A DNA stretch of 64,000 bases from Skermanella rosea (GTDB lineage Bacteria; Pseudomonadota; Alphaproteobacteria; Azospirillales; Azospirillaceae), in the NCBI RefSeq assembly GCF_016806835.2, contig NZ_CP086111.1, positions 2,801,001 to 2,865,000 of the forward strand, in the 5' to 3' direction. Below the pieces are notes generated by a model, which was not told the DNA's origin, searched no databases, and saw only the letters and a list, made by a program, of their open reading frames with translations. This document shows, piece by piece, positions 1 to 14,536 of the stretch. The stretch's first letter is position 1. Every line of letters begins with the position of its first letter. The position numbers and the translations under genes were made by a program.

Positions 1-473
1 GCCGCGCGCTGCACGGGGTGCTGCTGCGGGCGCCGGTGGCCGGCAGCCTGATTCGCCGGATCGAGGGCGGCCGGTTCGCCCGGCTGTTCTCCACCCTGGT
101 CGGCGCCGGCCTGACGGCGGCCAACGCGCTCGAACTGGCCCGCGGCGGCGCCACCAACATGGCGTTCGCCGATGCGCTGAAGGATGTCCGCGGCGCCCTG
201 GTCGAGGGCCGCGGCATCGCCGAGCCGCTGGCCGCCACGCGGATCTTCCCGGCCGTCCTGCTCGACCTGGCCCGCGTCGGCGAGGAGAGCGGACGGCTCG
301 GCGAGGTCCTGGGACACGCCGCCAACATCCTGGAGGAGGAGGCCGAGAGCGAGATCCAGCGCGGCATCGCCCTGCTGGCGCCGCTGCTGACCATCGGCCT
401 GGGCGGCGTGATCGCCTTCGTCATCGCGTCCGTCGTGATGGCGATCCTCAGCATGAACTCGATCGCCATGTAA
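1..473 (+). CDS. gspF: Type II secretion system protein F, C-terminal part (5' end outside window)
   Basis: This is the C-terminal 157 or so residues of the polytopic inner-membrane platform protein of a type II secretion (or related pilus) machine. The second GspF domain is visible: the segment RFARLFSTLVGAGL, the family hallmark VGEESGRLGEVL, and a final hydrophobic stretch starting at APLLTIGLGG that forms the last membrane helix, ending MNSIAM before TAA. In the family this protein anchors the assembly ATPase and pseudopilus. The start lies upstream of the window. gspL, gspM and gspC/N-like genes occur 6 kb downstream, so the secretion locus seems to be split by the copper-protein genes between them. 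Confidence 0.85.
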   Translation, partial: RALHGVLLRAPVAGSLIRRIEGGRFARLFSTLVGAGLTAANALELARGGATNMAFADALKDVRGALVEGRGIAEPLAATRIFPAVLLDLARVGEESGRLGEVLGHAANILEEEAESEIQRGIALLAPLLTIGLGGVIAFVIASVVMAILSMNSIAM

Positions 474-525: not shown

Positions 526-1890
526 TCAGGCCGCTCGCGGCCGTCGCCTGCCGGCGACCAGCAGGTAGTCCAGGACGGCCATCACGACCAGCGAGATCCC
601 AACCAGGGGGAACAGGATTCCGCCGATCATCAGGATCGCCAGGACGCCACGCAGGACACCCCGTTCCGCGGGCATGGGCGGGACGCCGAGCGAGCGGGCC
701 GGCCGGCGCTTCCACCACATGACGCCGGCGGAGACCGACAGCAGGACGATCGCGACGCAGACCAGCAGCATCACGACCTGGTTGGCGACGCCGAACTCCT
801 GCCCCATGTGGACGTTGATGCCCCATTCCAGCGCGCGGCCGAGCGGGCCGTAGTCGGCATAGCTCATGTCGATCAGCGGCTTGCCCGAGTACTGGTCCAG
901 GTGGACCACCCGCTGCTGCGACAGGTCGTCCGGGTAGGCCGACCCGGTATAGACTCCCGTAGGGCCGCCGGGCAGGCCGACCGCGTATCCCGGCGCCATG
1001 CCGAGCCGGTCGAACGCCGCGACCGCGCCGTCCAGCCCGATCGGCCCGCCGCCCGCCGGGGCGGACTCCGGCATGCGGGCCTGCTCCAGCGACCAGCTCG
1101 TCGGTCCCGACGCGTGCGCCAGATGCTCGTCGGACATCGGCACGGCGACCCGCACGCCCGCGGGATAGCCGAAATTGGAGCCGTTGGCCCATCGGTTCAC
1201 ATAATCGCCCCAATAGGCCGACCACGGCATCCCGGTGACCGCCAGGAACACGATGAAGCCGCCGACGAAAATCCCGGTCACGGCGTGCAGGTCACGCTAG
1301 AATACCCGCTGGTGCCGTGTGCCGCGGACCGTCACGACGCCGCCTTCCCGTTTGCGCGGCCACCAGAGATAGATCCCGGTACCGACCAGCAGGATGGTCC
1401 AGCCGCCGGCGATCTCGATGGCCGCATTGGCCACGGGTCCGAACCAAGCGAGGCTGTGCAGCTGGCGGACCACCCACATCACCGAGCCCTTGTCGGGGAT
1501 ATCGCCGAGTACCCGCCCGGAGTAGGGATCGACGAAGACCGACAGCTTTCCTGCCGCCGTCTTGACGCCGACCTCGGCGGAGGACTGCGGATCGGCCGGC
1601 GGCGTGTACTTGACCGCGGTGCCAGGATAGGCCGCCAGTGCGGCGTTCACCAGGACCGATGGCGCCGCCCGCTCCGCGGCCGTGACTTCCACCTGCTCGA
1701 GATCGCGGTAGAGGAAACCATCGATCTCGTCCCGGAACAGGTAGGCCGCTCCCGTCACCGCGAGAAGGATGAGGAACGGCAGCACCAGCAGGCCGGCATA
1801 GAAGTGCCAGCGCCAGACGGCGCGGTAAACGCTCGAAGAGGAGATGGATACCGGCCGCGACGGGACGGATCCGAGGGAAGTTTCTGTCAT
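526..1890 (-). pseudogene. PepSY-associated TM protein interrupted by an in-frame amber stop
   Basis: Read on the minus strand, one frame from 1890 to 526 encodes a PepSY-associated membrane protein of the usual length (about 453 aa). An N-terminal helix follows WRWHFYAGLLVLPF, then comes a periplasmic PepSY region, the helix GGWTILLVGTGIYLWWPRKR, a second half starting RDLHAVTGIFVGG, and a C-terminal helix pair. A single TAG at about 1298-1300 splits it between QRVF and RDLHAVTG. The family normally has an aromatic residue, usually Trp, here, so TGG to TAG is the simplest explanation. No frameshift is needed. Such proteins are thought to act in metal or siderophore-linked reduction at the membrane. 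It may be a pseudogene or an amber-suppressed gene; a sequencing error is also possible. Confidence 0.75.
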
Positions 1891-3010: not shown

Positions 3011-4189
3011 ATGCGCAGGCGCGAATTCCTCAAGTACGGCGGTGCCTTTGCGGCGTTTGCCACGACCTCCACCTCCCTTCCGACGATCCTTTCGGCGCAG
3101 ACGTCCGAAGATGCACCGACCGGCGAAGAAGCCGATTTCGATCTGGAGATCGTCGACGTCGACGTCGAACTGATCGACGGCAGCATTGTCCCGATGTACG
3201 CCTTCTGCCACGCCGGAAAGCCCCCGACCATCCCCGGCCCCATCCTCCGGGTGACCCAGGGCGACACCGTCCGCATCGACATCCGCAACTCCAGCGCCCA
3301 GTCCCACGGCTTCCAGATCATGGGCCAGAGCAATGCCGTAGTCTCCGGATTGGCTCCCAGCGACGGCGACGGCGAGGACAAGGCGCGGATCGAGTTCGTC
3401 GCGACGAAGCCGGGAACCTATTTCTACGTCGATTGCGACAACTCCCCGATCAACCGCGTGCTGGGACTTCACGGGGCGCTGATCGTGGAGCCGAAGAACG
3501 GCTATGCCGACGGTGCGGCCCGAAAGAAGCCGATGCCCTATGCTCCGGGCGCGGCCACGCCCGCCATGAAGTCGCTGTTCACGGCGTTGGGTGAAGCGAC
3601 GATCGACGGCAAGCCCGCCCGCTTCCCCGGCAAGCCGTGGCAGAAGGGACGGGAATATGTCTGGATCTTCAACCAGATCGACCCGGTCATGTGCCGGCGG
3701 ATCGGAGCCGGGGAACTGGTGACGCCGGCCGAGTTCCAGAGCCAGTTCCATCCCCGGTACTTCACGATCAACGGCCTGTGCGGGCTGGACTCCGCCCATG
3801 ACAAGGCGACCTGCCCGACCGGCCATGTCGGCGAGCCGGCGCTGATCCGCAGCATGAACGCCGGCCTGGCGACCCACAGTCCGCATATCCACGGAAACCA
3901 CGTCTTCGTTCTGACCGAGAGCAACAACAACGGCGTCCCGATATACCAGGCCAGCCTGAGGGAGCACGATGTCTGGACGATGCCGCCGATGGAGATCAAG
4001 GACGTCCTGCTGCCGTACACGGCGCCGCCCGACGTGCCGCCGGCACCCTGGCGGATGGTTCAGGAGAAATACCCTCTGCGCTATCCGATGCACTGCCACA
4101 ACGAGATCTCCCAGACCTCCGCAGGCGGCTCCTATCCGATGGGCCTGGTCACGGACTGGCATATCGACGGTCCGTTGAGCACCAGCTGA
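3011..4189 (+). CDS. Tat-exported cupredoxin protein carrying only the C-terminal half of a multicopper oxidase site (protein A)
   Basis: 392 aa. It starts MRRREFLKYGG, a Tat motif (RRxFLK) followed by a hydrophobic stretch and a likely cleavage after ILSAQ (residue 30). There are two cupredoxin domains. The N-terminal one has lost the oxidase ligands: the usual HxHG is SHGF (residues 98-101) and the usual YHxH is YVDCDN (139-144). The C-terminal one keeps HSPHIHG (H289, H292, H294) and HCH (H361-C362-H363), with M377 placed as an axial ligand, but the second type 1 histidine is Ser/Gln (367/368). Alone it cannot form a complete trinuclear copper centre. The next gene encodes a protein with exactly the missing half. 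ATG preceded by AAGGAGTG supports this start. A multicopper oxidase superfamily assignment is secure; the substrate is unknown. Confidence 0.8.
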   Translation: MRRREFLKYGGAFAAFATTSTSLPTILSAQTSEDAPTGEEADFDLEIVDVDVELIDGSIVPMYAFCHAGKPPTIPGPILRVTQGDTVRIDIRNSSAQSHGFQIMGQSNAVVSGLAPSDGDGEDKARIEFVATKPGTYFYVDCDNSPINRVLGLHGALIVEPKNGYADGAARKKPMPYAPGAATPAMKSLFTALGEATIDGKPARFPGKPWQKGREYVWIFNQIDPVMCRRIGAGELVTPAEFQSQFHPRYFTINGLCGLDSAHDKATCPTGHVGEPALIRSMNAGLATHSPHIHGNHVFVLTESNNNGVPIYQASLREHDVWTMPPMEIKDVLLPYTAPPDVPPAPWRMVQEKYPLRYPMHCHNEISQTSAGGSYPMGLVTDWHIDGPLSTS

Positions 4190-4335
4190 GCCGTCGGACG
4201 GCCTTCCGGACCGCTCCGGCAGGCCGTCCGTCCCGCATCCCGAGATACGCCACGCCCCGGTTCAACCGATAGAACGCCAGACGGACTCGCCGCGACGGCG
4301 CTGCGCAGAGTCCCGAGCGTCCTGGAGAGCAGAGA

Positions 4336-5397
4336 ATGACGACCATCTACCGCCCGATCTCCGATCCCCTCGAGTTCGATACCTTCGGCTGCCATCCCTT
4401 CGAGAACGACCCCGCCACGCCCGACCGGACCAGCCGCCAGGTTTTCCTGCGCCGGCAGGTGGCCGACTGGAACGTCGACATGAAGGACGGTTCGCAGATC
4501 CAGTTCTGGGGCTTCAAGGATCCCGACGTTTCCGGCAGCGATTCCCCCTGGCCGTCCAAGATGATCCGGGTGAAGCAGGGCCAGGTCTTCCATTGCGAGT
4601 TCAAGCCGACCAAGGGTGCCCATACCATCCATTGGCACGGCATCGAGCCCACTTCCATGAACGACGGGGTCGGCCACACCTCGTTCGAGGTCAAGAGCAG
4701 CTACACCTACCAGTGGTGCGCCCATCAGGCCGGCACTTATCTCTACCACTGCCACAAGAACACGATCCTTCATTTCGAGATGGGCATGTACGGCGTGCTC
4801 ATCGTCGATCCGCTCACCAAGAGCCCGGACACGAACAACCCGAACTACCTCTACGACCCCGTCGCGGGTGACTCCGCGCCCGGCATCACCCTTGGCGCGC
4901 CCTACTCCGCCGAATCAATCCTGGTCTTCGACGATGTCGACCCGGTGTGGCACAAGCTCGACCACAATGCCGGCATGTGCGGCGACGATGTCGGCCTGGA
5001 CAAGTTCAACCCGACCTATTTCCTGATCAACGGCGTCCACAACGGCAGGACCCAAACGGACTCGCGGACCGTCACGCGGATGACCGCCGGGCGCAACCTG
5101 ATGCTCCGCATCGCCAACGCCTCCTACAGCCGGCTGCATATCACCCTGCCGTTCAACTGCTACATCGTCGAGGTGGACGGCCGTCCCCTGCGGACCAACC
5201 GCGCCAAGGGCTGGTTCTCGACTCCGGAGTACAAGGCGGCGGGCAGCAAGCTCGAAGTCGCCGTCGCCCAGCGCTACGCCATCTGGGCACCCCAGGTTCC
5301 GCGCGGCGATCATCTGATCACCGGCAGCTTCCATCACTGGATCACCAACAAGCGGCACTTCGACGGCACCGCCAGCGCCAAGGTCGTGGCTCTCTGA
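4336..5397 (+). CDS. Signal-less cupredoxin protein carrying the N-terminal half of a multicopper oxidase site (protein B)
   Basis: 353 aa, two cupredoxin domains. Domain 1 has HTIHWHG (H96, H99, H101) and YHCH (H138-C139-H140) followed by H146 and M151, which is a complete type 1 copper set plus four histidines suited to a type 2/3 site. Domain 2 (from about residue 190) has no HxH or HCH motif, so this chain too is half an oxidase. No signal peptide is present. An in-frame TAG at 4270-4272 and a polar stretch before the ATG (GGAGAG upstream) rule out a missed N-terminal leader. The gene follows protein A by 146 bp and precedes SCO by 18 bp. Export as a complex with the Tat-tagged neighbour is an inference. 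It could alternatively be a two-domain laccase- or nitrite-reductase-like homotrimer that has lost its second site. Confidence 0.75.
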   Translation: MTTIYRPISDPLEFDTFGCHPFENDPATPDRTSRQVFLRRQVADWNVDMKDGSQIQFWGFKDPDVSGSDSPWPSKMIRVKQGQVFHCEFKPTKGAHTIHWHGIEPTSMNDGVGHTSFEVKSSYTYQWCAHQAGTYLYHCHKNTILHFEMGMYGVLIVDPLTKSPDTNNPNYLYDPVAGDSAPGITLGAPYSAESILVFDDVDPVWHKLDHNAGMCGDDVGLDKFNPTYFLINGVHNGRTQTDSRTVTRMTAGRNLMLRIANASYSRLHITLPFNCYIVEVDGRPLRTNRAKGWFSTPEYKAAGSKLEVAVAQRYAIWAPQVPRGDHLITGSFHHWITNKRHFDGTASAKVVAL

Positions 5398-5415: not shown

Positions 5416-6345
5416 ATGCGAACCATCACTTTGCCGAAGGGTGCCGGGCGGGCGGCGATCCTGGCCGTGCTGCTGGCGGGCGGTTCCGCCCTCTGGCTCG
5501 GCACCGCAGCGCCTTCCGCCCGGGCGGAAGGCGGCCATGCGGGACATTCCGAAGCGGCGACCCCGGAGGCCGCCGCGGCTTCCGCGAGCCACGGCGGATA
5601 CGGCGCCCACAGCGGCTGGCCCGAGCCGCATCAGCTGGGCGGCGACTTCAGCCTGACCGACCATACCGGACGCAAGGTGACGCTGGCCGATTTCAAGGGC
5701 AAGGCGACCGCCTTCTACTTCGGCTACACGCAGTGCGACGACATCTGCCCGATCATCGGCACCAAGCTGGGCATGGCGGTCGACCTGATGGCCGACAAGG
5801 CCGACCAGGTCAACATCGCCATGATCAGCGTGGACGACCGCAACGACGGGCCGGAGCAACTCGCCTCCTTCGTCGCCAAGCAGCATCCGCGCCTGATCGG
5901 CCTGTCCGGCAACCGGCGGGAAATCTACGAAGTCGCGGCGAAGTACCGGGTCCGCCGCGACTACGTGATGCAGAACCAGCTTGCCAAGGAAGGCGAGCAG
6001 CCCGCCGGTGGCCATGACGCCGCGGAGGCGACTTCGCATGCTGGCCATGGCTCGGCTGGCCACGGCCAGCACGGGGAGGAAACGACTCCGGTCACTCCGG
6101 TCTCCGCCGACGCAGGCACCGCGGCAGCCGCTTCGGAGCCGGCGAACGAGCCGCGGAAGCCGGGCGAGCGTATCAGGATCCGGTCGGCCTCCGACGACGC
6201 GACACGGCTCCACAACATGGCGATGGCGCACACCACGCACATCTACCTGTTGAACAAAGAGGGCCAAGTTGTCCGATATATTTACCCAAGTATGTCGCCC
6301 GAACAGCTTGCCAAGCGCCTCACCGACCTGATCAATGAAGGCTGA
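5416..6345 (+). CDS. SCO1/SenC/PrrC-family copper chaperone with His-rich insertions
   Basis: 309 aa with an N-terminal signal segment (residues 10-37, ending PSARAEG) and a thioredoxin-like SCO domain. The copper-binding CDDIC (C107, C111) sits in YFGYTQCDDICP, and the distal ligand histidine lies in HTTHIYLL (about H275). Two His-rich stretches are unusual: one right after the signal (GGHAGHSE, SHGGYGAHSG) and a long insertion at 199-220 (GHDAAEATSHAGHGSAGHGQ) with a Pro/Ala-rich linker before the last strand. That makes it much longer than typical SCO proteins, which have about 200 residues. SCO proteins deliver copper to exported cuproenzymes, so the likely clients are the two copper proteins directly upstream. 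Its start is 18 bp after protein B, behind GGAAGGAG. Confidence 0.85.
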   Translation: MRTITLPKGAGRAAILAVLLAGGSALWLGTAAPSARAEGGHAGHSEAATPEAAAASASHGGYGAHSGWPEPHQLGGDFSLTDHTGRKVTLADFKGKATAFYFGYTQCDDICPIIGTKLGMAVDLMADKADQVNIAMISVDDRNDGPEQLASFVAKQHPRLIGLSGNRREIYEVAAKYRVRRDYVMQNQLAKEGEQPAGGHDAAEATSHAGHGSAGHGQHGEETTPVTPVSADAGTAAAASEPANEPRKPGERIRIRSASDDATRLHNMAMAHTTHIYLLNKEGQVVRYIYPSMSPEQLAKRLTDLINEG

Positions 6346-6393
6346 TCGCCGTCGACACGACACGGCGGATGATCGCGATTGGAGAAGTTGTTC

Positions 6394-7437
6394 ATGGCCG
6401 CGACTGGCACGCTTACAGAGACCGCATTGAAGGGCTGGCGCTGGTGGACCGGCGAGTTGAGCTCCCTCGTGCCGCGCAGGCTCCGTACCCTGGTGCAGTC
6501 GAAGGACCTCCGCGTCGAGCTTGCGGCGGACGCGATCACCGTCCGCCGTTCGGCCCGCTCATCGTCGACCTTTTCCCTGCCGCTAGCGCCGGATGACAGG
6601 GAAGCCCTGAAGCGGTTGCTGAAGCGCCGCCGCATCGCGGTCGTCTTCGCGGCGGGCCGGGCCGTCACCTGTCCGGTGGAACTGCCGCTCGCCGCGGAGC
6701 GTTCGGCCCTCCAGGCCCTTCGCTTCGAGGTCGACCGGCGAACCCCGTTCAAGGCGGACCAGGTCCATCTCGGGTATCGCGTCCGGCAGCGCGACGCCGC
6801 CGGCCGGCGGCTCGTCTTGGACATGATCTGCGTTCCGAAACGCCTGCTCGACCCGATCCGCGAAATCCTGGCGGACGCCGAGGCCTCCATCGGGTCCCTG
6901 TCGGTCGACCTTCCCCAGGGCACCGTCGATCTCGGCTTCGGCGCCGCCCGGCCCGCGGCCGGCGGCGCCGGCCGGATCGTCGCATTGGGCTGGGCGATCG
7001 GCCTGGGCGCGGCCCTGGCCGGCGTCCTGGTTCCCCTGGTCCGTCTGGAGACGACGGCCGAGACCCTGGAAGCAGAGGTGGCCGACCTGCGCCTGAAGGC
7101 CGCGAAGGCCGGCGACCTGGAGCGCCGCATCTCCGAGATCGCTGCCCGCGAGCAGGCGCTGGACGCTTTTCTGGCCGACAAGGTTCCGCTCGTCCTGCTG
7201 GCGGAACTGGCCCGCATCACGGGCGACGATACCTACCTGACGGGCTTCCGGTTCGACGGTCGCACCGTGCAGATCGACGGTTCGACCAGATCGGCCGCCG
7301 GCGTCGCCGAGGTGATCGAGGGGTCGGCCCATTTCCGCAACCCGGTCTTCCGCACGGCAGTCGTCCCCTCGGGCGATGCGGGCGAGGATTTCTCCCTCAG
7401 CTTCGAGCTGGAGCGTGCGGCACCGGAGGGCCGATGA
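6394..7437 (+). CDS. gspL: GspL/PilN-like secretion system inner-membrane protein
   Basis: 347 aa. A cytoplasmic N-terminal region (to about residue 190) has the segment LRFEVDRRTPFKADQVHLGY, typical of GspL/PilM-N-type proteins. One membrane helix follows (VALGWAIGLGAALAGVLVPLV), then a coiled coil (LETTAETLEAEVADLRLK) and a periplasmic ferredoxin-like domain. In type II secretion GspL links the ATPase GspE to GspM. The start is set at ATG 6394 because GGAGAAG lies 6-12 bases before it; a TTG 15 bases upstream would leave no room for that site. It follows SCO by 48 bp and overlaps gspM by four bases (ATGA), so it appears to belong to the copper-protein operon. Confidence 0.7.
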   Translation: MAATGTLTETALKGWRWWTGELSSLVPRRLRTLVQSKDLRVELAADAITVRRSARSSSTFSLPLAPDDREALKRLLKRRRIAVVFAAGRAVTCPVELPLAAERSALQALRFEVDRRTPFKADQVHLGYRVRQRDAAGRRLVLDMICVPKRLLDPIREILADAEASIGSLSVDLPQGTVDLGFGAARPAAGGAGRIVALGWAIGLGAALAGVLVPLVRLETTAETLEAEVADLRLKAAKAGDLERRISEIAAREQALDAFLADKVPLVLLAELARITGDDTYLTGFRFDGRTVQIDGSTRSAAGVAEVIEGSAHFRNPVFRTAVVPSGDAGEDFSLSFELERAAPEGR

Positions 7438-8012
7438 ACACCTTGACCATTTCACCCCGACTTTCGAAGCTGCTGGCGCTGACGATCCTCGTCTCACTGG
7501 TCATGGGATCGGTCAATCTCGTCGTCATTCCCTTGCTGGACCGCTTCGAGGCGGCCCAGGCCAGGCTGGCCGACGCCGCGGCCTGGCGGGCGCGCCTGAC
7601 TGCCGCGGTTAAGCGGATTCCCGTGCTGGAGCAGACGCTGCAGGAAACGCAGGACGCCGCAGGCAGCCGCAAGGGCATCCTGCGCATCGAGAACGAGGCT
7701 CTCGGGTCCGCCGAGTTCCAGAAGCTCATCCAGAAGCTCGTGGCGGAATCCGGAATCCAGCAGCGCAGCATCCAGCCGGTGCCGGCACGGCGCGAGCACG
7801 ATGCGGTCCAGCTGGGCATCCGCGTGAGGGCCGCCGGCGACGAGGCATCCTTGGCAAGGCTTCTCGGTGCCGTCCAGCAGCACGATCCGTCGCTCGCCGT
7901 GCGCAGCCTTCACATCGCCGCCGATTCCAGCCGGGGAGACCCGTCCGCAGAGCCCCCCCGGATCGACATTCAGGCGGATTTCGACATCCTGGCCATCGAG
8001 GACCGCAAGTAA
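7434..8012 (+). CDS. gspM: Type II secretion protein M-like
   Basis: 192 aa. A short cytoplasmic N-terminus is followed by one membrane helix (LLALTILVSLVMGSVNLVVIPL), a helical linker (RFEAAQARLADAAAWRARL) and a small periplasmic alpha/beta domain (residues about 85-190). This matches GspM architecture and size. GspM pairs with GspL in the inner-membrane platform, and here the two genes overlap by ATGA. It ends one base into the next gene. Sequence identity to typical GspM proteins is naturally low, so the call rests on topology and on lying between gspL- and gspC/N-like genes. Confidence 0.65.
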   Translation: MNTLTISPRLSKLLALTILVSLVMGSVNLVVIPLLDRFEAAQARLADAAAWRARLTAAVKRIPVLEQTLQETQDAAGSRKGILRIENEALGSAEFQKLIQKLVAESGIQQRSIQPVPARREHDAVQLGIRVRAAGDEASLARLLGAVQQHDPSLAVRSLHIAADSSRGDPSAEPPRIDIQADFDILAIEDRK

Positions 8013-8848: not shown

Positions 8849-11014
8849 ATGCGGCTCGCCCCACGCCACTGGCTCTTGTCAGCCTCGACATGTCTCATTA
8901 CCGCTGCGACGGTGACAGGCCTCTGGTCGTCGCTGGCGGTCGCTCAGACCGTGTCGGATGATCCGGCCGACGAGATCGAGATCATCGACGAGATCGAGGA
9001 CACGGAACCCGACGACGAGGTCATCGACGTCAACGAACCTGATGACCGTCCCCTGGCATCCCTGAAGGGTTATGCACCGCCGATGCCCGACCTGACCGGC
9101 ATCGTCAGGAACGCAGCCTGGGCCAAGGCCGCCGGCAAGGCGCTGTTCTGGGACCAGCAGATCGGAAGCGACACGGTGGCCTGCGCCAGCTGCCACTTCC
9201 GGGCCGGGGCCGATCCGCGCGTGACCAACCAGCTCAACCCCGGCCTCAACGCCGGAGACAAGATGTTCGGCTCCACGGCCGGCACCGGGCTGATGGGCTC
9301 CGGCCAGCCCGCCGGCCCCAACATCACCCTGAAGCCCGAAGACTTCCCGTTCCGCAAGCTGCAGAACCCGAACAACGCCAAGAGCAAGGTGCTGTTCGAC
9401 ACCAACGACGTGTCGGCGTCGCCGGGCACCTTCGCCGGCGACTATGTCGGCACGATCGAACGGCCCAAGCAGCGGCCGCGGGCCACCAATACCGATCGTT
9501 GCAGGATGACCACCGACGAGGTGTTCAACGTCCTCGGCCATGGCACGCGCAAGGTCGAGCCCCGCAACTCGCCGACCGTCATCAACGCGGTGTTCTATCA
9601 CCGTAACTTCTGGGACGGCCGGGCGAACAACCTGTTCAGCGGCGTCGGCGTGTTCGGCCGGCGCGACATCCGCAACGATCCGGCGGCGCGCCTGCTTGTC
9701 TTGAAGCCGGACGGCTCCGTCGCCTTGCAGAACGTCCGGCTGGAGAACGCGAGCGCCGCGTCGCAGGCGGTGGGTCCGCTGCTCAGCGACTTCGAGATGT
9801 CCTGCACCGCGCGGACCTTCGCCGATATCGGCCGCAAGATGATGGCCCAACAGGCGCTCAAGCTCCAGACGGTCCACATCGGCGACAGCCTGTTCGGATC
9901 GGGCGGCCCGGTCGGCGACATCATCAGCGCTTCGAAGATCGGCCTGAAGCACACCTACGGCGAAATGATCCAGCGGGCATTCGCCAAGCGTTTCTGGGGA
10001 TCGCCCGACCGCTTCAAGTTCGTGACCAACCCCGAAGACGGGTCCGTCAGCCTGGTCAAGGATCCCAACGGCTACACCCAGATGGAGCTTAACTTCCCGC
10101 TCTTCTTCGGCCTCTCGGTCATGCTGTACGAGGCCACGCTCATCTCCGACGACAGCCCGTTCGACCGCGGCCAGCTCACCGCGCAGCAGCAGCGCGGCAA
10201 GGAGATCTTCGAGGGCAAGGGCAAGTGCATCGCCTGCCACGACGGCCCGCTGATGTCGAAGGCGGCCCATGTCTCTACTCCGGGAAAGCAGCCCAAGCTG
10301 GTCGAGCGCATGCCCATGAGCGACGGCAACCCCTCGCTTTATGACAACGGCTTCTACAACATCGGCGTCCGGCCGGTGCAGGAGGATCTGGGTGTCGGCG
10401 GCACGGATGCCTGGGGCAAGCCGCTCTCCTTCTCCCGCCAGTGGGTCCAGGGGCGGAAGCTCGACTCCTTCCTGATCAACGCCTGCGACTTCGAGGTTCC
10501 GTTCCCCGGGCAGGAACTCGTCGGCTGCAAAGGGGACGTCGTTCCGCCGGGCATCAACCTGAGGGACGAGCGCCTGGCCGTGAACGGCGCCTTCAAGACC
10601 CCCACCCTGCGGAACGTGGCGCTGACGCCCCCCTATTTCCACAACGGCGGACAGGCCACGCTGCAGCAGGTCATGGCCTTCTATAACCGCGGCGGCGATT
10701 TCAGCAGCGCCACCAAGTCCCCCGACGTGACCCCGCTGGGCCTGACCCTGGCCGAACAGGATGCGCTGGTGGCCTTCATGCAGTCGCTGACCGACGAGCG
10801 GGTCCGGTGCTCGCGCGCGCCCTTCGACCACCCCGAACTCCTGGTCCCCGACGGCCACAAGCCCGATACCGTGAAGGCGGACGGCCGCCTGGCCGACCGG
10901 CTGCGGGTGCTGAACGCCACCGGCGCGGCCGGCTACCCCTCCGACAAGTGCCCGTCCAACACCGGCAACCTCTTCGACATGGCACGCAACATCAACGGCC
11001 TGCCGATCAAGTAA
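8849..11014 (+). CDS. Large secreted di-haem cytochrome c peroxidase/MauG-family protein
   Basis: 721 aa. An N-terminal signal segment (TCLITAATVTGLWSSLAVAQ) is followed by a very acidic linker (residues 37-66, DEIEIIDEIEDTEPDDE) and a di-haem peroxidase fold. The two haem c motifs are CASCH (112-116) and CIACH (460-464). Family signatures such as PRNSPTVINAVFYHRNFWDGRANNLFSG and LRNVALTPPYFHNGGQATLQQVMAFYNRGG are clear. At over 700 residues it is about twice the size of ordinary bacterial peroxidases and resembles the long MauG/RoxA-type branch, whose members oxidise external substrates or make radical protein modifications. It follows the secretion genes and ends at a strong terminator. Substrate and electron donor are unknown. 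Confidence 0.8.
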   Translation: MRLAPRHWLLSASTCLITAATVTGLWSSLAVAQTVSDDPADEIEIIDEIEDTEPDDEVIDVNEPDDRPLASLKGYAPPMPDLTGIVRNAAWAKAAGKALFWDQQIGSDTVACASCHFRAGADPRVTNQLNPGLNAGDKMFGSTAGTGLMGSGQPAGPNITLKPEDFPFRKLQNPNNAKSKVLFDTNDVSASPGTFAGDYVGTIERPKQRPRATNTDRCRMTTDEVFNVLGHGTRKVEPRNSPTVINAVFYHRNFWDGRANNLFSGVGVFGRRDIRNDPAARLLVLKPDGSVALQNVRLENASAASQAVGPLLSDFEMSCTARTFADIGRKMMAQQALKLQTVHIGDSLFGSGGPVGDIISASKIGLKHTYGEMIQRAFAKRFWGSPDRFKFVTNPEDGSVSLVKDPNGYTQMELNFPLFFGLSVMLYEATLISDDSPFDRGQLTAQQQRGKEIFEGKGKCIACHDGPLMSKAAHVSTPGKQPKLVERMPMSDGNPSLYDNGFYNIGVRPVQEDLGVGGTDAWGKPLSFSRQWVQGRKLDSFLINACDFEVPFPGQELVGCKGDVVPPGINLRDERLAVNGAFKTPTLRNVALTPPYFHNGGQATLQQVMAFYNRGGDFSSATKSPDVTPLGLTLAEQDALVAFMQSLTDERVRCSRAPFDHPELLVPDGHKPDTVKADGRLADRLRVLNATGAAGYPSDKCPSNTGNLFDMARNINGLPIK

Positions 11015-11447: not shown

Positions 11448-12548
11448 TCAGTCGATGCGGATCTCGACATCGGTGAGCGGAGCCCCGACGGTCTGGCCGT
11501 TCACGGTGTACTGGGCGCGCACCTTGGCAGGGCACCCCAAGGTCGTCGTGATCCGGGCGTCATAATCATAGACACCGAAGGTTTGCACGTCGGCCACCGC
11601 TGCAGCGGTCCCGTAATCCGCCCGTACCACGCCGTCCAGGGCCGGCTTGAAGATATTGACGTTGCCCGTGGCACCGTTGGTGGCATTTGGATTGTGGATG
11701 CTGCCGCGGACTTCGAGATCGATCGAGTTGGCGTCGCGCTGGCGGCACTGGGCCCGCTGGATACTCACGGCGGGTGCATCGGGGTTGACCAGTTCACCGG
11801 CATCGGCCTCGATGGTAAAGGCAAGAAACACCTTCTGCCCGTTCACCATGCCGTAATGCCCCTCTGCCGCCACGAAGGTGCCCGGCCCGATCGAGACCGG
11901 TTTGATACGGAAACCATAAGCATTCATGATCGGCGAGCCCTTGTAGCGTTCATCGTACAGGGGATGGGTCGAGGAGCCGTTCTCATACAGGCCGTTGGTT
12001 TTCGGGTACGCCGGGTAAGAATTGGCGGTCGAAGTGCTCGGCAGGAGGATAACCTTGCTGCCCTCGATATCGAACCACTTGTCCCTTGCCGTATTGCTGT
12101 TCTTCCGAACGGTTCCGAGAAGGACGTTCTCGGCCGTGTCGGCGAAGATGGTGTCAGCGGTGACGATCCCGGTCGGATTGCCGGCGGCGTCGGGCGGGCC
12201 GGCGACGCTGGTCCCGGTCACGATGCCGGTCCCGCCGATGAATCCCGGTCCTTTGGTGAAGCCCGGGATCTTGTCAGTGCTCTTCAGCTGAGAGATCGAC
12301 AGATCCCCCGAAATGCTGGTGATCCTGGTCGCCGACGTCATGTTGACCCAGACGCCCATGATCTTCATGCGATGCACGCCTGCGGGTGTCGTATCGAAAC
12401 CTTCGATCTCGCCTTCGATCTCCACGTCTTGGGGTCCGGGTACTGCCTGCGAGAAGGCCGGCGTCGGCGTCGTCATGACCGTCGTTGCGAGCAGGCCCGG
12501 AGACAGGAGTGCGGTCGTCAGAAGCAGGGACTTACCAAAGTTGCGCAT
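11448..12548 (-). CDS. Secreted protein of unknown function, paralogue 1
   Basis: 366 aa, not recognised. It starts MRNFGKSLLLTTALLSPGL, a signal peptide probably cleaved near AFSQA. ATG 12548 is chosen because AAGGAATT lies just upstream, while further-upstream starts lack a site and add a non-signal leader. The mature part is rich in Val, Thr, Gly and Asn (likely beta). It opens with VEIEGEIEGFDTTPAG and contains the core RAQCRQRDANSIDLEVRG, a later GCPAKVRA and the tail DVEIRID. The next gene downstream on the same strand order (12993-14057) shares all these blocks: RAQCRQR-xxN-xIxLEVRG, GCPA and a terminal D-x-RID. The three cysteines recur in both. Its neighbours suggest it is cargo or a partner of the copper/di-haem/secretion cluster; that is inference. 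Confidence 0.7.
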   Translation of the reverse strand: MRNFGKSLLLTTALLSPGLLATTVMTTPTPAFSQAVPGPQDVEIEGEIEGFDTTPAGVHRMKIMGVWVNMTSATRITSISGDLSISQLKSTDKIPGFTKGPGFIGGTGIVTGTSVAGPPDAAGNPTGIVTADTIFADTAENVLLGTVRKNSNTARDKWFDIEGSKVILLPSTSTANSYPAYPKTNGLYENGSSTHPLYDERYKGSPIMNAYGFRIKPVSIGPGTFVAAEGHYGMVNGQKVFLAFTIEADAGELVNPDAPAVSIQRAQCRQRDANSIDLEVRGSIHNPNATNGATGNVNIFKPALDGVVRADYGTAAAVADVQTFGVYDYDARITTTLGCPAKVRAQYTVNGQTVGAPLTDVEIRID

Positions 12549-12565
12549 ATTCAATTCCTTGGTAT

Positions 12566-12584
12566 CACTCCATTTATTGGAGTG
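12566..12584. promoter_or_regulatory. 19-bp inverted repeat in the leader of paralogue 1
   Basis: CACTCCA-TTTAT-TGGAGTG ends 18 bp before the ATG at 12548. It could be an operator or an mRNA hairpin close to the ribosome site. Only the symmetry is seen. Confidence 0.4.
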
Positions 12585-12936
12585 CTTTGATGAAGTTCTA
12601 AAAGGCCGATTTGCCGTATTGATACCCCCTGGATGGCTGCCCAGGAGCTTTGGCAAGAAGAAGAGAAGTGACGGGAAGTCGAATGCTCAACCAGCGACAA
12701 GGCGGTCGCCGCTGCGATCGATGCCGTCCCGAACAGGACTGCAACGGATCACCGATCGATCAGCAAGATGCAATCAGAACCTCCCGGATAGCTGTCGTTA
12801 ATTACACGACGAACTGGAAAGTTTGTTATTCCCGGAATTTTTGAATCTTCATGGGGTACATCCCGACGATACTGCCCCGTACTGTCCCGGCTATTCCGAA
12901 CGTTAGACGGCGTGTCCGCGGCATACCACCGGCAGG
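12585..12936. other. Gene-free spacer between the two secreted paralogues
   Basis: About 350 bp of lower GC without a convincing gene. It should contain the promoter for paralogue 1 (minus strand). No recognised regulator box was found. Confidence 0.4.
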
Positions 12937-12992: not shown

Positions 12993-14057
12993 TCAGTCGA
13001 TGCGGTTGTCGACGTCGGACGTGGCCTGGATGTTGACGATGGCGCCGTTCGCATTGGTGGTCGTCACCGGCCGCCGGGTGTTCGGATCGAGCAGCCGGGC
13101 GGCGATCGTGGCAGGGCAGCCGTCGCCGGCCTGGGAGCCGGTTTGCGCGTTGGTGAGGCGCGCATCGACCCGGTAAAGGGCGAACCGTCCGTCCTCGGCG
13201 TCGGGAACCGACGTCACATTGATCGGGTAGACGAATCGCGCCAGCCCATTGCCTGCGACGCGAAAGATTTCGATACCGGCCGCGGGCGATGCCGTGGTTC
13301 CCATGTAGGTGGCGCCACGGACCTCCAGTTCGATGTCGTTCGGAGCACGCTGCCTGCATTGCGCCCGGAGGATGCTGATCTTGGGTACCGTCGGATTCGT
13401 GATCTCGCCCCCCGTCACCTCCAGATCCCACAGGTAGAGCTTGCTGTCCTCGTCGGACCACCAGCCTTCCGCGGCCACGGGCGTGCCGGGGACGATGCTG
13501 TTGCGCGCGAGCGGGAACCCGAAGTCGTTCTTCAACGGGTTGCCGGGGACACGGGGATCGAAAGGCGACTTGTTCGCGGGGAACGAGTTGGTCCCGGCGC
13601 GCGGGGGCATCAGGACGATTTCCATGCCGTCCAACTTGAGCGTGCCGCCGCTGTTCTGGGTGATGTAGCCGAGAGCCACATTCTCCTCCGGGTTCAGCGA
13701 TATGTCGGAGGCCGTGACCTTCACACCGTCGCTTTCACCGATGACGATCGCTGTCCCGTTAAGGAACCCCATCGGCTTTCCCGGAAGGTTGCCGGTCACC
13801 GCGTCCGTCCAACTGATGTTCGGGTTCGTCGGTGTGGAGATCTTCGCATCCGACGGAACATGGATAACCGTTCCCATCACCGTCATGGTCCGTCCAGTCG
13901 CGTCCATGTACTGGATCCTGCCCTCGATCTCGACCTCTACCGGGGCGAACGGGGCGGTCTGCGCCTGGACGGCCCCCGAAAGGGAAATGACGGTCGCCGA
14001 TGTCAGAAGTGCCGTCTTGACGACGGTCGTGAAAGAACGACTTGTCAGGCTGCGCAT
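12993..14057 (-). CDS. Secreted protein of unknown function, paralogue 2
   Basis: 354 aa, not recognised. The signal peptide is MRSLTSRSFTTVVKTALLTS to VQAQ; ATG 14057 is preceded by GAGGA at good spacing. The mature protein begins VEVEIEGRIQYMDATGRTMTVMGT, parallel to VEIEGEIEGFDTTPAG in paralogue 1. It contains NPEENVALGYITQNSGG (compare ADTAENVLLGTVRKNS), RAQCRQRAPNDIELEVRG, GCPATIAARL and the end DVDNRID. The two proteins are clearly homologous over their whole length yet quite divergent, so the duplication is old. They are transcribed toward the di-haem gene and separated from the copper operon by terminators. A periplasmic or extracellular beta-sandwich role is possible; no function is claimed. 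Confidence 0.7.
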   Translation of the reverse strand: MRSLTSRSFTTVVKTALLTSATVISLSGAVQAQTAPFAPVEVEIEGRIQYMDATGRTMTVMGTVIHVPSDAKISTPTNPNISWTDAVTGNLPGKPMGFLNGTAIVIGESDGVKVTASDISLNPEENVALGYITQNSGGTLKLDGMEIVLMPPRAGTNSFPANKSPFDPRVPGNPLKNDFGFPLARNSIVPGTPVAAEGWWSDEDSKLYLWDLEVTGGEITNPTVPKISILRAQCRQRAPNDIELEVRGATYMGTTASPAAGIEIFRVAGNGLARFVYPINVTSVPDAEDGRFALYRVDARLTNAQTGSQAGDGCPATIAARLLDPNTRRPVTTTNANGAIVNIQATSDVDNRID

Positions 14058-14536
14058 AGGCAAATCCTCTGTATCGCTCCCGCACCGGGGAACGTTGAGA
14101 TGAAGGATCAGACTGTAGGGGTGACTTCTTCCGGACCGCTTGTCATGCGACCATGTCGGCGGGAACTGGCGATAGTCGAACCTTCGACTGAGATTCAGCC
14201 GCTTCGCCCGGTCATCGAAAACATGCGATAAGCGTCTCCCTATGGCCCCTATCGCCGGGATGACGAATTGGCAGAACCATTAATTCCCGGAGTCTTGCAT
14301 CGCTGAAGGATTACGCCCTTCATGCATTCATATTACGTTGCACAACCCTTGGCGAACGCCTGAGAGTACTTTGTTTCATTTGGAACGATCGGAGGGGCGC
14401 GATGATCATCCCGAGCCGACCCGGTCCCTCGATACCGCCATTTACCTGGATCAAGGCAAGCCGTCGCGTCGGCGCCTAGAGTCGACGGAAACGCACCTGC
14501 GGAAGGCTCCGGAGGTTCCAAGGGAGGATGACGGCA
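14058..14536. other. Divergent promoter region between paralogue 2 and the stress-protein gene
   Basis: About 480 bp without a gene. It holds an FNR-like box at 14441-14454 facing the stress-protein gene and, near 14238-14260, a CCCTATGGCCCCTATCGCC stretch of unknown meaning on the side of paralogue 2. Confidence 0.4.
14441..14454. promoter_or_regulatory. Degenerate FNR/NNR-type box
   Basis: TTTAC-CTGG-ATCAA resembles the TTGAT-N4-ATCAA consensus with two mismatches. It is centred about 90 bp before the start of the universal stress protein, leaving room for a transcript start near 14489 if the site acts as a class II activator site. Confidence 0.5.

What the first reader, a model, noticed from the sequence alone, without database searches (positions are those of the whole stretch)
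3011..5397. Two adjacent copper proteins each carry half of a multicopper oxidase centre
Protein A (3011) keeps the C-terminal-type ligands HSPHIHG and HCH but has lost the N-terminal ones. Protein B (4336) has HTIHWHG and YHCH plus a full type 1 set in its first domain but no ligands in its second. Together they hold the eight histidines a trinuclear centre needs (B: H99, H101, H138, H140; A: H292, H294, H361, H363) and one complete type 1 site. Two-domain laccases build this centre between identical subunits; a split between two different genes would be a heteromeric version I do not know as described.
Basis: partly seen in the sequence, partly recalled or inferred. Interest (0 to 1): 0.78.

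Follow-up and report, generated by a model that had tools for sequence, protein, structure and literature searches.

The report
Copper oxidase split across two genes
Two neighbouring bacterial genes each appear to carry half of the copper centre that reduces oxygen to water, so the working enzyme would be a mixed complex of two different proteins rather than the usual ring of identical ones.

Summary
A (3011-4189) and B (4336-5397) are two-domain multicopper-oxidase (MCO) paralogues with complementary ligand halves. A's four trinuclear histidines are invariant in 29 of 29 aligned sequences; B's four, and its type 1 His/Cys/His, in 34 of 34. A's 'type 1' cysteine is not conserved. The pair is an old unit: in 31 of 36 B loci A lies directly upstream, in one A sits between two Bs, in four the contig begins inside B. 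In 82 genomes of the order the same 5 hold both and 77 neither. A carries a Tat signal in 29 of 29 aligned sequences, B in 1 of 37, which suggests B is exported bound to A. An Arthrobacter plasmid carries an apparent A-B fusion. Predicted models of two read-through fusions match four-domain stretches of ceruloplasmin-like proteins; ligand distances could not be measured. I found no paper on a split heteromeric MCO. Most likely: a Tat-exported heteromeric type C-like two-domain MCO, probably released by the surrounding type II secretion system; substrate unknown, Mn(II) a lead. Against strict pairing: one A without B on plasmid pTC1.

The parts
3011..4189 (+). Gene A: Tat-signal-bearing two-domain cupredoxin protein, donor of the domain-2 half of the trinuclear centre
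3014..3100 (+). Tat signal region of A (RRREFLKYGGAFAAF...); R3 and R4 invariant in 29 of 29 aligned sequences
3884..3892 (+). A H292 and H294 (HxH of PHIHG): predicted type 2 and type 3 ligands
   Evidence: invariant 29 of 29; aligns with HSHG of the type C 2dMCO 2zwn
4091..4099 (+). A H361-C362-H363: two predicted type 3 ligands; the middle residue varies (C/S/D/T), so no type 1 site
   Evidence: aligns with HDH of 2zwn domain 2
4336..5397 (+). Gene B: two-domain cupredoxin protein without an export signal, donor of the domain-1 half of the trinuclear centre plus the only type 1 site
4621..4638 (+). B H96 (type 1), H99 (type 2), H101 (type 3)
   Evidence: invariant 34 of 34; aligned to HTIHWHG of 2zwn
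4747..4788 (+). B H138 and H140 (type 3), C139, H146 and M149/M151 (type 1)
   Evidence: invariant 34 of 34; HCH aligned to 2zwn
5416..6345 (+). SCO1/SenC-type copper chaperone next to B; likely copper-delivery partner
   Evidence: PF02630 E 4e-33; SCO1 homologue detected in 14 of 36 related loci
18..473 (+). Type II secretion protein F (part of the cluster in which the pair is nested)
   Evidence: PF00482 E 2.3e-21
6379..7437 (+). GspL/PilN-like type II secretion protein
   Evidence: PF05137 (PilN) E 1.8e-9
7434..8012 (+). Type II secretion protein M
   Evidence: PF10741 E 7.1e-11
8849..11014 (+). MauG/di-haem peroxidase-like cytochrome c, recurrent neighbour; possible redox partner
   Evidence: PF03150 E 6.3e-17; homologue detected in 9 of 36 related loci

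Best explanation
A and B are the two different subunits of one multicopper oxidase related to the type C two-domain MCOs. Each chain has two cupredoxin domains. In the ring arrangement of two-domain MCOs, domain 2 of one chain faces domain 1 of the next. Here domain 2 of A (H292, H294, H361, H363) faces domain 1 of B (H99, H101, H138, H140), and together they bind the three coppers that reduce O2 to water. B's type 1 copper (H96, C139, H146, Met) takes electrons one at a time from a substrate and passes them through the HCH motif to this centre. The other domains (A domain 1, B domain 2) have lost their ligands and serve as scaffold. A carries the Tat signal; B has none and would be co-exported bound to A (a hitchhiker), so only assembled pairs reach the periplasm. 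SCO1 probably helps to load copper. The surrounding type II secretion genes suggest the complex then leaves the cell. Shown: ORFs, ligand conservation, synteny, the signal pattern, and fold matches of two predicted read-through fusions. Inferred: the physical complex, the copper centre at its interface, hitchhiker export, secretion, substrate and stoichiometry.
For: Ligands: invariant and complementary, 29 of 29 A and 34 of 34 B. A domain 2 aligns with domain 2, and B domain 1 with domain 1, of the type C 2dMCO 2zwn. Synteny: A directly upstream of B in 31 of 36 loci from Alphaproteobacteria, Desulfuromonadales and other Deltaproteobacteria, Planctomycetota and Gammaproteobacteria, A between two Bs in one, the other four cut by the contig end inside B. 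Both or neither in 82 of 82 genomes of the order, all 15 B matches having an A match just upstream. Export: twin arginine in 29 of 29 aligned A; a Tat-like leader in 1 of 37 B whose start could be read. Apparent fusion: Arthrobacter plasmid locus L092. Structure: fusion of the L043 pair pLDDT 85.9, pTM 0.89; 518 residues align with ceruloplasmin 1-697 at 4.0 A, Z 20.9. A second, divergent pair (L073), pTM 0.77, has factor V, MnxG and ceruloplasmin as top Foldseek hits with TMq 0.5-0.6, against 0.36 for a single 2dMCO. Distances between paralogous pairs in Skermanella correlate between A and B, r 0.95 over 8 A-B pairs.
Against: No complex, copper content or activity has been measured. Ligand distances were not available from the models. 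The models are of one-chain fusions, which could force A against B, and the network knows ceruloplasmin-like rings; no negative control was run. The VIA list for the second model shows mainly matches of its B half and no ceruloplasmin row. Plasmid pTC1 of P. aurescens has an A with all four histidines but no B on that plasmid. The A of the Arthrobacter fusion locus L092 has no Tat signal at its annotated start, and the pTC1 A has no RR motif although it is annotated as a Tat protein. One B (second B of L071) has its own Tat-like leader. Only 4 of the 55 plasmid records with an A match were opened. A six-domain ring cannot be closed by one A and one B, so the stoichiometry is open. Synteny and correlated distances also follow from linkage alone.
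Confidence: 0.82

Rival explanations
1. A and B are both exported and work together, but never share a centre: B homo-oligomers act as a type 1 electron carrier, and A homo-oligomers act as a copper-binding chaperone or store.
For: Each half of the fusion model matches two-domain proteins on its own; one A occurs without B on pTC1.
Against: All eight trinuclear ligands are strictly kept in two proteins that would each hold only half a site. A's cysteine and first histidine drift while its four trinuclear histidines do not. B has no signal of its own in 36 of 37 sequences.
Confidence: 0.1
2. Each half-centre is completed by a third cupredoxin or MCO encoded elsewhere, not by the neighbour.
For: The genome holds other MCO genes, and in L092 a further MCO gene lies nearby.
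Against: Among ORF clusters shared by at least 3 loci no separate third cupredoxin family appeared; those identified are SCO1, MauG-like, CHRD-type secreted, secretion and haem-peroxidase proteins. A and B already supply exactly the complementary halves.
Confidence: 0.05
3. A or B is a decaying duplicate of an ordinary two-domain MCO, and the split is degeneration.
For: Paralogous copies, one A beside a transposase without its B, and fragments exist in Skermanella.
Against: The pair recurs over several phyla with invariant ligands and is kept as a pair in several copies per genome.
Confidence: 0.03

Closest known systems
Two-domain multicopper oxidases of type C (2zwn metagenomic laccase, 3g5w Nitrosomonas europaea blue copper oxidase; their class C is recalled)
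   Same: Two cupredoxin domains per chain, type 1 copper in domain 1 (in B), the same HTIHWHG/HCH and HxHG/HxH motifs, trinuclear centre expected between chains (classes and inter-protomer centre: passages of PMC13151041).
   Different: There the chains are identical and each carries both ligand halves. Here each chain carries one half, and two genes are needed.
Ceruloplasmin
   Same: The predicted A+B fusion matches ceruloplasmin residues 1-697 from the first to the last of its four domains; one trinuclear centre would serve a ring of unlike domains (ring and D6:D1 site recalled).
   Different: Ceruloplasmin is one six-domain chain.
Mnx complex (MnxG with MnxE/F), Bacillus
   Same: A heteromeric copper oxidase; MnxG (9bxa) is the top Foldseek hit of the first fusion model. 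Only mnxG encodes an MCO and mnxEFG are together required for activity (passages of PMC5622069).
   Different: [quoted passage not shown] here both subunits are MCO paralogues that share the centre's ligands.
Copper nitrite reductase NirK
   Same: Homologous two-domain fold; metal site between neighbouring chains (recalled).
   Different: A and B score 42 and 40 bits against the NirK model cut-off of 296, and B keeps all four domain-1 histidines of a trinuclear centre.
Tat hitchhiker complexes such as hydrogenase subunits (recalled)
   Same: One subunit bears the twin-arginine signal, the partner bears none.
   Different: Not known to me for a multicopper oxidase; the paper search on Tat hitchhikers and MCOs listed four papers whose titles and abstract starts do not describe one.

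Membership tests
Two-domain multicopper oxidase (2dMCO), type C | Two cupredoxin domains per chain | tested here: met
   (model of the L043 pair); Pfam matches
Two-domain multicopper oxidase (2dMCO), type C | Type 1 copper ligands in the N-terminal domain | tested here: met
   Met by B only (H96, C139, H146, M149/M151 invariant 34 of 34); A has no type 1 set
Two-domain multicopper oxidase (2dMCO), type C | Both trinuclear ligand halves in the same polypeptide, shared between identical protomers | tested here: not met
   A has only the domain-2 half, B only the domain-1 half
Two-domain multicopper oxidase (2dMCO), type C | Homotrimer | not testable with these tools
   No multimer prediction; one-chain fusions only
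Copper nitrite reductase NirK | Match to the curated NirK family model | tested here: not met
   TIGR02376: 42.2 and 39.9 bits, cut-off 296.3
Mnx-type manganese oxidase | One large MCO chain with small non-MCO accessory subunits | tested here: not met
   Both A and B are two-domain MCO-type chains
Tat hitchhiker complex | Only one subunit has a Tat signal | tested here: met
   For the window pair: RR on A, none on B. Family: RR in 29 of 29 aligned A, Tat-like leader in 1 of 37 B; exceptions L092 A, pTC1 A (no RR) and L071 second B. Motif and hydropathy only, no signal-peptide predictor
Tat hitchhiker complex | Export of the second subunit depends on the first | not testable with these tools
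   Needs an export assay

The most novel reading that the evidence does not exclude
A heteromeric, ceruloplasmin-like A1B2 (or A2B1) ring with a single trinuclear centre. It is assembled before export, carried through Tat by the signal on A and then secreted by a dedicated type II system, to work outside the cell as a metal (perhaps Mn(II)) or polymer oxidase together with di-haem MauG-like or MopA-like partners. A contig with gene order B-A-B (L072) and one with two Bs in a row (L071) hint at the extra B.
Probability: 0.25. Interest if true: 0.86.

Novelty: new variant of a known kind. Interest (0 to 1): 0.74.

Why it matters
Multicopper oxidases are textbook single-gene enzymes, and the two-domain ones solve the interface problem with identical subunits. 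A version in which two paralogues each kept one half of the ligands is a natural case of complementary loss of function inside one active site. It may model the step from homotrimeric two-domain enzymes to single-chain ceruloplasmin-like ones. It also gives a practical handle: half-sites can be mutated, exported or tagged separately. And it makes testable whether Tat hitchhiking enforces assembly of a copper enzyme.

Tried and rejected
Rejected: NirK and defence-system families (no match). Also rejected: that A's HCH is a second type 1 site, because C362 varies to S/D/T and H289 to F/N/Y; A's HxH corresponds to HDH in domain 2 of 2zwn.

Tried without result: viral-contig scans with both family alignments found no relative. 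The single-sequence B search in 289 class genomes matched 128 at E <= 0.001, but outside the own genome the best match was 66 bits; the best two encode an ordinary two-domain MCO with both halves in one chain (L010) and a fragment that ends inside its domain 2 (L011). The A-profile search of 289 class genomes gave 9 genomes at E <= 1e-15, of which only the own genome holds A itself; G228 and G007 gave the ordinary MCO relatives at 104-105 bits and the rest 60-66 bits. These genome searches score only a limited number of first-look candidates per genome (6, up to 23 and 25). Of 55 plasmid records matching A, I opened four (the records of L092-L095); the others, all under 60 % identity and mostly partial, were not checked for a B. 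The VIA-align list for the second fusion model shows mainly matches of its B half and no ceruloplasmin row in its 50 entries; its Foldseek list does show ceruloplasmin. Promoter and terminator scan: no terminator-like site and one promoter-like site on the other strand, about as many as shuffles give.

Literature: ten searches over the open-access PMC library only. Listings were seen, only the first 12 of 14, 12 of 15 and 15 of 89; passages were read of PMC6247904, PMC5622069, PMC13151041 and PMC12195979. None that I saw describes a multicopper oxidase whose trinuclear ligands are split between two genes; subscription papers and preprints were not searched. Type 1/2/3 assignments of individual residues follow recalled MCO knowledge plus the alignments.

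Rows dropped before counting: incomplete A of L044, L051, L056, L057 and L065 (from A1), and incomplete or broken B of L057, L060, L064, L069, L074 and the second B of L072 (from A2). The plasmid loci L092-L095 and the other Skermanella stretches L096-L099 are not in A1 or A2.

Full report
What is in the window. ORF A (3011-4189, 392 aa) and ORF B (4336-5397, 353 aa) lie 146 bases apart on the + strand, with no terminator-like site found between them. Both match Pfam Cu-oxidase_3 and Cu-oxidase_2 above the curated cut-offs. Neither reaches the cut-off of any NCBIfam model listed; NirK scores 42 and 40 bits against 296. The window genome (G000, 7.76 Mb) holds a second A-B pair at C1:5852105-5854492. 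Skermanella aerolata loci are the closest named relatives found (B 81-84 % for four of its seven loci), so the window is probably Skermanella (inference).

Ligands. B domain 1: H96-T-I-H99-W-H101-G, and Y-H138-C139-H140 followed by H146, M149 and M151. A domain 2: H289-S-P-H292-I-H294-G-N-H297 and M-H361-C362-H363. In alignments of 29 A and 34 B sequences (the others 27-84 % identical to the window's), the only invariant histidines of A are 292, 294, 297, 361 and 363, and of B 96, 99, 101, 138, 140 and 146. C139 and both methionines of B are also invariant. A's C362 is C in 22, T in 3, S in 2 and D in 2; A's H289 is H in 24 of 29. A therefore keeps exactly four trinuclear histidines and no type 1 site. 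In A domain 1 and B domain 2 no histidine is invariant. Profile alignment puts A's HxHG and HxH over HSHG and HDH of domain 2 of the type C enzyme 2zwn, and B's motifs over domain 1 of the same protein.

Distribution and synteny. A scan of one genome per species with B gave 36 loci: Skermanella, Hyphomonadaceae and other Alphaproteobacteria, Desulfuromonadales and other Deltaproteobacteria, one Planctomycetota MAG, Gammaproteobacteria, and single MAGs labelled Proteobacteria, Thermoanaerobaculales and bacterium. In 31, A is immediately upstream on the same strand. In L072, A sits between two Bs. In L060, L069, L071 and L074 the contig begins inside B. A is incomplete or broken in five of these draft contigs (L044, L051, L056, L057, L065). 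Searching 82 genomes of the order with each family profile at E <= 1e-30 found A in 5 and B in the same 5; 77 have neither, and all 15 B matches have an A match just upstream. The positives fall in two genera, so this is not 82 independent tests, and one of them (G289) is probably the S. aerolata genome already counted above. A without B was seen in three places. In G290 an A lies beside an IS-type transposase where B would be. On G289 contig C255 there is an A fragment, not followed. On plasmid pTC1 of Paenarthrobacter aurescens there is an A with all four histidines and no B; its chromosome was not searched. Indioceanicola profundi plasmids carry A-B pairs (L094, L095). An Arthrobacter plasmid (L092) carries an A whose reading frame runs on into the start of B, followed by B in another frame, which looks like an A-B fusion gene with a frame change. 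Only 4 of 55 plasmid records matching A were opened.

Export signal. Every A in alignment A1 has twin arginines (29 of 29) with a Tat-like motif and a hydrophobic stretch behind. Of 30 A starts read, 29 have the motif; L057, broken by unknown bases, does not. Outside the alignment, L094-L099 A have RR, but the A of L092 has none at its annotated start and the pTC1 A has no RR although it is annotated as a Tat protein. Of 37 B sequences whose start could be read, one (second B of L071) has a Tat-like leader; an RR in L067 lies before the start codon. This used simple motifs and hydropathy, not a signal-peptide predictor. If B works outside the cytoplasm, as its SCO1 and secretion neighbours suggest, it must be carried, and A is the obvious carrier. 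That would need the A:B complex to form before export.

Structure. The tool folds one chain, so I used pairs in which B follows A's stop codon(s) in the same frame and read the stop as glycine. Fusion L043 (743 aa, 48-row alignment A3): pLDDT 85.9, pTM 0.89. VIA-align pairs 518 residues of it, between 9 and 743, with human ceruloplasmin residues 1-697 at 4.0 A and Z 20.9; three-domain nitrite reductases rank just above with rmsd near 17 A. Foldseek's first hits are MnxG (9bxa) and ceruloplasmin. In ceruloplasmin the domain 2:3 contact is the pseudo-symmetric counterpart of the 6:1 contact that holds the trinuclear centre (recalled), so A domain 2 and B domain 1 would face each other with their ligands. 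The divergent in-frame pair L073 folded with pTM 0.77. Its Foldseek list is headed by factor V, MnxG and ceruloplasmin with TMq 0.5-0.6, against 0.36 for a single two-domain MCO. Its VIA-align list shows mainly matches of the B half and no ceruloplasmin row. No coordinates were available, so no ligand distance was measured; a fusion may favour contact, and no negative control was run.

Neighbourhood and likely job. The window pair is nested in a type II secretion cluster: gspF (18-473), GspL/PilN-like (6379), gspM (7434), with GspE and prepilin peptidase upstream in L076. SCO1 is next to B, and a MauG-like di-haem protein follows (8849). Among the 36 loci, homologues were detected of SCO1 in 14, the MauG-like protein in 9, the CHRD-bearing secreted protein of L068 in 7, prepilin peptidase in 5, secretin in 4 and a MopA-like animal haem peroxidase in 4 (families). 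Many loci are truncated, so these are lower bounds. MopA-type peroxidases and some MCOs oxidise Mn(II) (passages of PMC6247904), and the Arthrobacter and Paenarthrobacter loci have an Nramp transporter within about 2.5 kb of A. Mn(II) is therefore a lead for the substrate, no more.

Compared with the known. Two-domain MCOs are trimeric, with the trinuclear centre coordinated by residues of two protomers, and are classed A, B or C by the place of the type 1 copper (passages of PMC13151041). A+B would work like a type C enzyme but fails one defining feature: both halves are not in one chain. Mnx is heteromeric, but only MnxG is an MCO (passages of PMC5622069). Ten searches of the open-access library showed no split heteromeric MCO among the listings seen. 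I rate it a new variant of a known kind.

Limits. No biochemistry; no multimer prediction; stoichiometry open, since a six-domain ring needs a third chain; the reciprocal survey from A covered one order, one class sample, plasmids (4 records opened) and viral contigs only.

Noticed in passing
L092 4577-6924 (Arthrobacter sp. FW305-BF8 plasmid): A continues in frame into the N-terminus of B and B goes on in another frame: an apparent A-B fusion gene with a frame change.
   Followed up: partly
L072 200-3002; L071 2-2196: Contigs labelled Gammaproteobacteria and Proteobacteria with gene order B-A-B, and with two B genes in a row, hinting at more than one B per complex.
   Followed up: partly
L049 9072-10115, L052 6045-9878, L055 5995-10416, L062 8180-12979: MopA-like animal haem peroxidase (RTX repeats seen in L055; L062 by homology only) close to A-B in Hyphomonadaceae and a related alphaproteobacterial MAG; suggests a link to Mn(II) or extracellular oxidation.
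   Followed up: partly
window 526-1281 and 1297-1890 (- strand): Two ORFs match consecutive parts of one PepSY_TM profile (183-295 and 1-175), so one gene may be split by a frame change.
   Followed up: no
window 11448-12656 and 12993-14063 (- strand): Two proteins with a VEIEGxIE-type segment and no Pfam match at 1e-3; a homologue of the first lies directly upstream of A in Indioceanicola (L094 4804-5874).
   Followed up: partly
L059 10219-12747, L063 2174-4270, L067 1958-4057, L068 1912-3951; L092 7373-9343: Secreted-type proteins with a GFPxWYxD segment (CHRD domain in L068) recur beside A-B in Deltaproteobacteria and Arthrobacter.
   Followed up: partly
L096 7914-8963: IS-type transposase (rve, HTH_21) lies where B should be, next to an intact A in a second Skermanella genome.
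   Followed up: yes
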